Shown here: positions 35,810 to 37,093 of the stretch, piece by piece
Layout of the letters: each line of letters begins with the position of its first letter
Numbering within the stretch: the first letter of the stretch is position 1
NCBI GenBank assembly: GCA_903862955.1
Contig: CAIPAH010000022.1
Location: 186,001 to 250,000 of the forward strand
Direction of reading: 5' to 3'
Length of the DNA stretch: 64,000 nt
Source of the DNA: an uncultured Opitutia bacterium
GTDB taxonomy: Bacteria > Verrucomicrobiota > Verrucomicrobiia > Opitutales > Opitutaceae
Made by a program: the position numbers and the translations under genes
The notes under the pieces: model-generated
The model's database searches: none
Seen by the model: only the letters and a program-made list of their open reading frames with translations
What the model was told of the DNA's origin: nothing

Positions 35810-37093
35810 CTACCCCACCAGCCTTCGCAGCCCCACAATCTCCCCCGCCCTCGCCAGATCACCGGCGAGGTTTTTCATTTCCAGCGGATCGCTCTCGAGG
35901 TCGAAGAATAGCCACGGCGAGCCATCCGCGTTGAGCACGAGCTTGCGCGTTTGGGTGCGCACGCCGCGCCACACCCGGTCGCACTGGTAGGGCAGCGCCA
36001 CGACGGACGGCATCGAGATTTGCGCCACGATGGGTTGAGTCGGCTTTGACGCACCCGGCCCGGCCGTGGACAACGTCGCCAAATCCAACAGCGAAACCGC
36101 CGCGTCATCCTTCCGCGCCGCCACCCCGGGCGTCCGGACCAGCAGCGGCACCCGCAGGCTCTCCTCGTAAGGCCAGCCTTTCCGAAACAATCCGTGCGCG
36201 CCGTGCATGTCGCCGTGCACGCTGGTGAACACGACGATCGTCTCCTCGCGTCGCGTCGACGCCACCAGCCGCCCAATCGCCCGGTCCGTGGCCTCGATGT
36301 GCGCGTAATAGCCCGCAAGTTCCTTTCGCGCCTTGGCCTCCACCTCGCCGCCCCGCGGCACATTCGCGGGCAAAATAATCTCACCCGGCGCCCGCGCCGC
36401 CACGCCGGCCGCCGGCGCGCCATACGGCGGATGCGGCGCCTCCAGGCTCACAACGCAAAACCAAGGCTGTCGGTCGGGCTTTCCCGACCGCCGTAGGCTC
36501 GGCGAAGGAGGAACGCCCGATAGGCTGCGGTTCGCGGCCGAATTATCGGGGCTAAATCCCGACCTACACCAGTCACCAGTGCGGTCGACGACCACGTCGC
36601 TCTGATACCCCTTCACCTGCACCGGCTCCGGCAGCCGCGTTCCATGCAGCCACGGGTCGTTCAGCAGAAAGCCGCTCTCGAATCCTTCCCAGAACTCGAA
36701 CCCGCCGCGCGACTCCGCCGGCACCACCATCTTCGCGTGCGCCTCGCCGATCAGCGTCACGGTCGGATCGCGCTTCGCCAGGTGCCACTTGCCGAAAAAC
36801 GCCGTCGCGTAGCCCCGCTCCTTCATCTCATTCGCCACCGTCCGCGCTGACGCCGGCAACGGGTCGAAATAGTCCCGCACCCCGTTCGCGGGCGACAATA
36901 CGCCAGTCAGCATCGCGGCCCGCGCAAACGGCCCAAACGGATGGGGCGTCACCGCCTGCGTGTAGTTCACGCTCTCCGCCGCCAGCGCGTCGAGACATGG
37001 CGTCCGCACATTCGGGTCGCCCGCATACCCCGTCGCCGCCGCCCGCCACTGGGTCGTCACAATCCACAGGATGTTCGGCTGGCGCGGGCTCAT
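35810..37093 (-). CDS. Sulfatase / arylsulfatase family protein
   Basis: RQPNILWIVTTQWRAAATGYAGDPNVRTPCLDALAAESVNYTQAVTPHPFGPFARAAMLTG ... FVVSLEAPHPPYGAP ... VVFTSVHGDMHGAHGLFRKGWPYEESLRVPLLVRTPG. Confidence 0.88.
   Translation of the reverse strand: MSPRQPNILWIVTTQWRAAATGYAGDPNVRTPCLDALAAESVNYTQAVTPHPFGPFARAAMLTGVLSPANGVRDYFDPLPASARTVANEMKERGYATAFFGKWHLAKRDPTVTLIGEAHAKMVVPAESRGGFEFWEGFESGFLLNDPWLHGTRLPEPVQVKGYQSDVVVDRTGDWCRSGFSPDNSAANRSLSGVPPSPSLRRSGKPDRQPWFCVVSLEAPHPPYGAPAAGVAARAPGEIILPANVPRGGEVEAKARKELAGYYAHIEATDRAIGRLVASTRREETIVVFTSVHGDMHGAHGLFRKGWPYEESLRVPLLVRTPGVAARKDDAAVSLLDLATLSTAGPGASKPTQPIVAQISMPSVVALPYQCDRVWRGVRTQTRKLVLNADGSPWLFFDLESDPLEMKNLAGDLARAGEIVGLRRLVG
36467..36568. repeat. 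Family K palindromic element inserted in frame within the sulfatase CDS
   Basis: Left tgtcggtcgggctttcccgacc; right atcggggctaaatcccgacctac; right arm matches the intergenic copy tcggggataaaccccgacctac (44052-44073) at about 20 of 22 positions. Confidence 0.8.

What the first reader, a model, noticed from the sequence alone, without database searches (positions are those of the whole stretch)
36467..36568. Family K palindrome inserted in frame inside a sulfatase gene
The sulfatase reads ...VDRTGDW-CRSGFSPDNSAANRSLSGVPPSPSLRRSGKPDRQP-WFCVVSLEAPHPPYG... The roughly 35-residue segment is encoded by an inverted-repeat element whose right arm (tcggggctaaatcccgacctac) matches the intergenic copy at 44052-44073. 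The reading frame stays open throughout. This resembles in-frame repeat insertions such as the Rickettsia palindromic elements, and would show these sequences are mobile.
Basis: partly seen in the sequence, partly recalled or inferred. Interest (0 to 1): 0.8.

Follow-up and report, generated by a model that had tools for sequence, protein, structure and literature searches.

The report
Mobile palindrome lodged in sulfatase loop
A short mobile palindromic DNA repeat (a REP element) sits, without breaking the gene, in a floppy surface loop of a sulfatase-like protein of a free-living bacterium; this kind of event is already known, but here the same loop appears to have picked up different repeats again and again in related species.

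Summary
Observation confirmed. The 34 residues between W175 and P210 are encoded by an imperfect head-to-head pair of GTAG-tagged REPs ("REP-A", GTAGGTCGGGCTTTACGCCCGA), with a second palindromic repeat ("REP-B") nested in one partner. REP-A has 106 pattern matches in this 3.6 Mb Opitutaceae genome (reversed-pattern control 15); the nested form recurs at two other loci. The frame stays open. AlphaFold2 (pLDDT 93) puts the segment in a disordered loop between helix 164-177 and strand 211-216. Most orthologs lack it; 16 of 113 carry REP-A-like peptides at the same place and others carry unrelated repeats there; a tree needs at least 9 changes of state. A RAYT transposase gene flanked by inverted REP-A copies is present, and within the genus its close homologs occur exactly in the four REP-A-rich genomes. 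The resemblance to Rickettsia palindromic elements is functional, not membership: this is a GTAG REP, and intragenic GTAG REPs were reported in Opitutus terrae in 2013 (PMC3733652). Only this copy of about 54 clusters is clearly intragenic, and it is degenerate: a tolerated relic of a mobile family, not proof of present movement. New: the nested composite and the recurrent filling of one loop.

The parts
35810..37093 (-). sulfatase-like gene, 427 aa, that carries the insert
   Evidence: Pfam PF00884 103 bits, PF16347 42 bits; best Foldseek hits are S1 sulfatases, TM 0.78-0.80
36467..36568 (-). whole in-frame insert, residues 176-209 (CRSGF...DRQ)
   Evidence: the only stretches with pLDDT under 50 (182-185, 188-191) lie in it
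36546..36567 (-). first REP-A copy, GTAGGTCGGGATTTAGCCCCGA (GTAG intact, 2 differences from GTAGGTCGGGGTTTATCCCCGA)
36469..36520 (+). second, inverted REP-A copy, GTCGGTCGGGCTTT / ACGCCCGA, split by REP-B (GTAG reads GTCG)
36483..36512 (+). 30-nt REP-B module nested in the second REP-A; core CCGCCGTAGGCTCGGCGAAGGAGG
   Evidence: 42 matches in genome, reversed control 0; the same nest at C9:83395-83438 and C16:31008-31051 with identical 44-nt spacing
44018..44073 (.). reference REP-A head-to-head dimer, not in a single coding frame
25972..25993 (-). single REP-A copy
24265..24288 (-). REP-B copy CCTCCTTCGCCAAGGCTACGGAGG
   Evidence: C22:210265-210288
53781..54767 (-). RAYT-like Y1 transposase gene (328 aa, NHYH and YIHLNP motifs) without flanking REP-A; probably not the cognate one
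   Evidence: NF047646 56 bits, cut-off 80

Best explanation
The segment is a relic of a BIME-type element: a head-to-head pair of GTAG REPs with a second repeat nested in one partner. Shown: it belongs to a high-copy dispersed family; the genome has a RAYT gene between two inverted consensus copies of that REP (a REPtron); the insert lies in frame in a disordered loop; most orthologs lack it; the loop has changed state many times on the family tree. Inferred: the RAYT moved or copied single-stranded REP units using GTAG and the hairpin (cleavage and strand transfer shown in vitro for E. coli, Stenotrophomonas and Marinomonas TnpA_REP, PMC8266576); one landed after the TGG codon at the end of helix 164-177; it survived because its length was a multiple of three, the frame avoided the TAG of GTAG, and the loop tolerates extra residues. 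The element then decayed (one GTAG reads GTCG), so it is probably immobile now and has no special protein function.
For: Copy number 106 against control 15. 28 head-to-head dimers with variable linkers. REPtron at C23:11767-12395: a 173-aa RAYT (HVH and Y-I-F-L-N-P motifs; NF047646 74 bits) between inverted REP-A copies. RAYT homologs above 130 bits within the genus occur exactly in G000, G002, G004 and G006, the four genomes with REP-A above control (4 of 4 against 0 of 8, p = 0.002); those in G002 and G004 are also flanked by inverted REP-A-type repeats. Structure: mean pLDDT 93.2, lowest in the insert. G002 and G004 orthologs have the short loop although their genomes hold REP-A. P0002 carries CRSGFIPDMSGVKPDLQ, which reads as the translation of a plain REP-A dimer. 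Composite form at 3 loci.
Against: Neither RAYT passes the NCBIfam cut-off (74 and 56 against 80 bits). No clean empty site: the nearest homologs are about 77-83% identical and the loop itself varies, so junction and target preference cannot be read. DNA of the REP-bearing orthologs was not available. G012 (another genus) has a 150-bit RAYT but REP-A at control level, and the RAYT of G006 has no REP-A within the fetched flanks.
Confidence: 0.85

Rival explanations
1. The loop is a recombination or gene-conversion hotspot: repeats arrive by illegitimate or homologous recombination between dispersed copies (or by gene transfer between species), with no transposase acting at this site.
For: Unrelated repeat kinds fill the same loop, including tandem/inverted arrays of GGAGACCGGA units that are not REPs (27 and 55 matches in G146 and G041; controls 4 and 0). 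The composite in this genome against a plain dimer in its close homolog P0002 suggests replacement between copies.
Against: REP-A peptides start right after the same helix end in nearly all 16 carriers and run from one GTAG end to the other, as expected of whole-unit insertion.
Confidence: 0.3
2. The inserted peptide has been co-opted and is kept for a protein function (binding, localisation, oligomer contact).
For: Similar peptides occur in 16 of 113 homologs at one site.
Against: Predicted disordered; sequence and length differ in each carrier; most homologs lack it; unrelated repeats occupy the same loop.
Confidence: 0.05
3. The insert is an ancestral loop of the family and its likeness to the REP is chance or convergence.
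For: Several orthologs carry a similar peptide.
Against: 22-nt match with 0 expected by chance; other whole-element matches in the genome; 54 of 113 homologs have the short loop.
Confidence: 0.02
4. The gene is a decaying pseudogene, so the insertion is neutral rather than tolerated in a working protein.
For: The subfamily lacks the sulfatase nucleophile and metal aspartates.
Against: The ORF is intact and many residues are invariant across the family; the same residues are missing in nearly all homologs, which points to a conserved non-classical protein, not decay.
Confidence: 0.06

Closest known systems
Intragenic GTAG REPs of Opitutus terrae and other bacteria (Di Nocera et al. 2013, PMC3733652)
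   Same: GTAG tag, short hairpin, head-to-head dimers, in frame within ORFs, related bacterium (Verrucomicrobia), RAYT genes flanked by the REPs; same-site intragenic REPs noted there for Xanthomonas recB
   Different: Here only one clear intragenic copy in the genome; the element is a composite of two repeat families; one loop is seen filled by unrelated families across many species. The published consensus figure was not available, so the family number could not be assigned.
Rickettsia palindromic elements (RPE; Ogata et al. 2000, 2002, as cited in PMC10969869 and PMC3733652)
   Same: Palindromic repeat inserted in frame in ORFs
   Different: RPE-4 and RPE-6 belong to the CGTC class without a dedicated transposase, and the first described RPEs are about 150 bp; this one is a GTAG REP pair with a RAYT
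E. coli REP/BIME with TnpA_REP (PMC8266576)
   Same: Two inverted REPs with a variable linker, GTAG before the hairpin, RAYT gene close to REPs
   Different: Those REPs are mostly intergenic; here one copy is part of a reading frame

Membership tests
GTAG REP / BIME | GTAG tetranucleotide 5' of an imperfect hairpin, high copy | tested here: met
GTAG REP / BIME | Paired in inverse orientation with a variable linker | tested here: met
   28 head-to-head dimers, most 59-61 bp
GTAG REP / BIME | Cognate RAYT gene flanked by the same REP | tested here: met
   C23 REPtron; G002 and G004 likewise; NF047646 is the only NCBIfam hit of the C23 protein but lies below its cut-off
GTAG REP / BIME | The RAYT cleaves and transfers this REP | not testable with these tools
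   needs biochemistry
GTAG REP / BIME | Mostly extragenic | tested here: met
   about 53 of 54 clusters are not clearly inside one coding frame on a crude codon-score test
Rickettsia palindromic elements | In-frame insertion in ORFs | tested here: met
   one copy only
Rickettsia palindromic elements | CGTC end (RPE-4/6) and no associated transposase | tested here: not met
   GTAG end, RAYT present
Rickettsia palindromic elements | Sequence similarity to RPE families | not tested
   no RPE sequence was fetched
S1 sulfatase (host protein) | Sulfatase fold | tested here: met
S1 sulfatase (host protein) | C/S-x-P/A-x-R nucleophile and metal aspartates | tested here: not met
   FGPFA at the nucleophile site in 109 of 120, TTQ in 111 and VHGD in about 109 of 120 homologs; the placing of these sites rests on the alignment to 2qzu

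The most novel reading that the evidence does not exclude
One surface loop of a conserved protein acts as a natural landing site for many unrelated families of dispersed repeats in Opitutaceae, so these genomes keep testing random peptide insertions in proteins; the loop would be a readable record of the repeat families active in each lineage, possibly with a site preference of RAYT insertion.
Probability: 0.3. Interest if true: 0.6.

Novelty: new member of a known kind. Interest (0 to 1): 0.42.

Why it matters
It adds a structurally placed case of a REP in a reading frame, links it to a likely transposase by phyletic co-occurrence, and points to a loop where the outcome of repeat insertion can be compared across dozens of species. 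That makes the question whether mobile repeats supply raw peptide material to proteins directly testable in free-living bacteria.

Tried and rejected
Rfam search of the element: no match. First AlphaFold2 run with close homologs only: pLDDT 52, unusable; redone with 85 diverse rows. Plain ORF overlap to count intragenic REPs: useless in this GC-rich genome, replaced by a codon score, which is crude. Idea that the SSSYAG-type loop peptide of G011 is a dispersed repeat: its DNA is single-copy there. Idea that the window's own RAYT (53781-54767) drives REP-A: no flanking REP-A and a weaker family score. Target-site consensus: only a pyrimidine before GTAG (78 of 92 sites), no duplication evident. 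Another possible intragenic copy (L139) was set aside because one flank scores as non-coding. Ogata 2002 is not held. No paper found on repeat insertion in protein loops of Verrucomicrobia.

Full report
OBSERVATION. The ORF 35810-37093 (-) is open for 427 aa and reads ...DRTGDW-CRSGFSPDNSAANRSLSGVPPSPSLRRSGKPDRQ-PWFCVVSLE... The insert is residues 176-209, codons 36467-36568. The inverted arms are 15 nt, 87% complementary. One arm matches the dimer at 44018-44073 with 2-3 mismatches, none expected in shuffles. The element is imperfect and not unusually stable as a single strand (z -1.7).

WHAT THE DNA IS. In the window's genome (3.61 Mb, 31 contigs) the pattern GTAGGTCGGGNNNNNNCCC occurs 106 times with up to one mismatch, against 15 for the reversed control. 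Most copies read GTAGGTCGGGCTTTACGCCCGA or GTAGGTCGGGGTTTATCCCCGA, and 28 pairs stand head to head, most 59-61 bp long with variable linkers. This is the anatomy of a GTAG REP and BIME. The insert has one REP-A with intact GTAG (36546-36567) and an inverted partner whose GTAG reads GTCG (36469-36482 plus 36513-36520). The partner is split by 30 nt (36483-36512) of a second dispersed repeat, REP-B (42 matches to CCTCCTTCGCCNNNNCTACGGCGG with up to 2 mismatches, control 0). The same nest, with identical 44-nt spacing, occurs at C9:83395 and C16:31008, so the composite is a small subfamily of its own. That REP-B is itself a GTAG REP (GTAG before CCTTGGCGAAGG on one strand) is my reading of the sequence, not a test.

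WHERE COPIES LIE. A codon-usage score on 240-nt flanks of 54 REP-A clusters finds the sulfatase copy as the only clear intragenic one. The test is crude and the clusters were drawn from the pattern hits, so old, degenerate intragenic copies could be missed.

PROTEIN. Pfam and Foldseek place the protein in the S1 sulfatase fold. With a diverse alignment AlphaFold2 gives mean pLDDT 93.2; the only stretches under 50 (182-185, 188-191) lie in the insert, between helix 164-177 and strand 211-216. Solvent exposure was not computed; that the loop is on the surface is inferred from its disorder and free length variation.

ORTHOLOGS. Of 113 close homologs with a readable loop, 54 have the short form, 16 carry REP-A-like peptides starting at the same place (for example P0002 CRSGFIPDMSGVKPDLQ), 4 a second kind, 24 tandem-repeat-like peptides (NPNAKTQTPK, EARGQRPEARGQ, GMRNAE) and 15 others; the classes were assigned by hand-made patterns. 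On a tree built without the loop, the REP-A label needs at least 9 changes, 5 forced by well supported branches; changes may be gains, losses or transfers. In Opitutae loci the loop DNA shows lineage-specific repeats. In G146 and G041 the loop is filled by GGAGACCGGA tandem/inverted arrays that are dispersed in those genomes (27 and 55 matches, controls 4 and 0). In G011 the loop motif is single-copy. Two further loops of the same protein vary likewise in other species (VTSDKGQVTSD; KIENRKSKIEN; GKGGSKTRPT).

MECHANISM. A 173-aa RAYT at C23:11829-12347 lies between inverted consensus REP-A copies. Within the genus, close homologs (over 130 bits) occur in exactly the four genomes with REP-A above control (p 0.002), and in G002 and G004 they are flanked by inverted REP-A-type repeats. 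TnpA_REP proteins cleave and join single-stranded REP DNA, with GTAG taking part in recognition and cleavage-site choice (PMC8266576). Insertion by this RAYT is therefore likely but inferred. Survival in a gene needs a length divisible by three (11 of 28 dimers) and the right frame: the frame that reads the TAG of GTAG is always closed, the CRSGF frame is open in 19-20 of 28.

COMPARISON. Di Nocera et al. 2013 (PMC3733652) reported GTAG REPs inside ORFs, most of them in Opitutus terrae, and suggested that insertions in flexible linkers or loops may be neutral. The present case is a new member of that kind. It works like an RPE insertion but is not an RPE.

VERDICT. A real, well-supported but already known kind of feature. 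The recurrent filling of one loop by unrelated repeat families is the part most worth following.

Noticed in passing
35810-37093 and homologs P0001-P0120: The whole subfamily lacks the sulfatase nucleophile (FGPFA instead of CxPxR) and metal-site aspartates (TTQ, VHGD): a conserved candidate pseudo-sulfatase of Opitutaceae.
   Followed up: partly
homologs of the sulfatase, loops near query residues 277-286 and 322-358: Two more loops carry repeat-like peptides in other species (VTSDKGQVTSD, KIENRKSKIEN, GKGGSKTRPT).
   Followed up: partly
window 53781-54767 (-): RAYT-like Y1 transposase of 328 aa without flanking REP-A; its own target repeat is unknown.
   Followed up: partly
L162, L163, L172, L175 (sulfatase loop): In-frame arrays of GGAGACCGGA units followed by near reverse complements, a different kind of coding palindrome; the motif is dispersed in G041 and G146.
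   Followed up: partly
G000:C9:83394-83466 and C16:30966-31056: Composite REP-A/REP-B elements with the same nest junction as in the sulfatase.
   Followed up: yes
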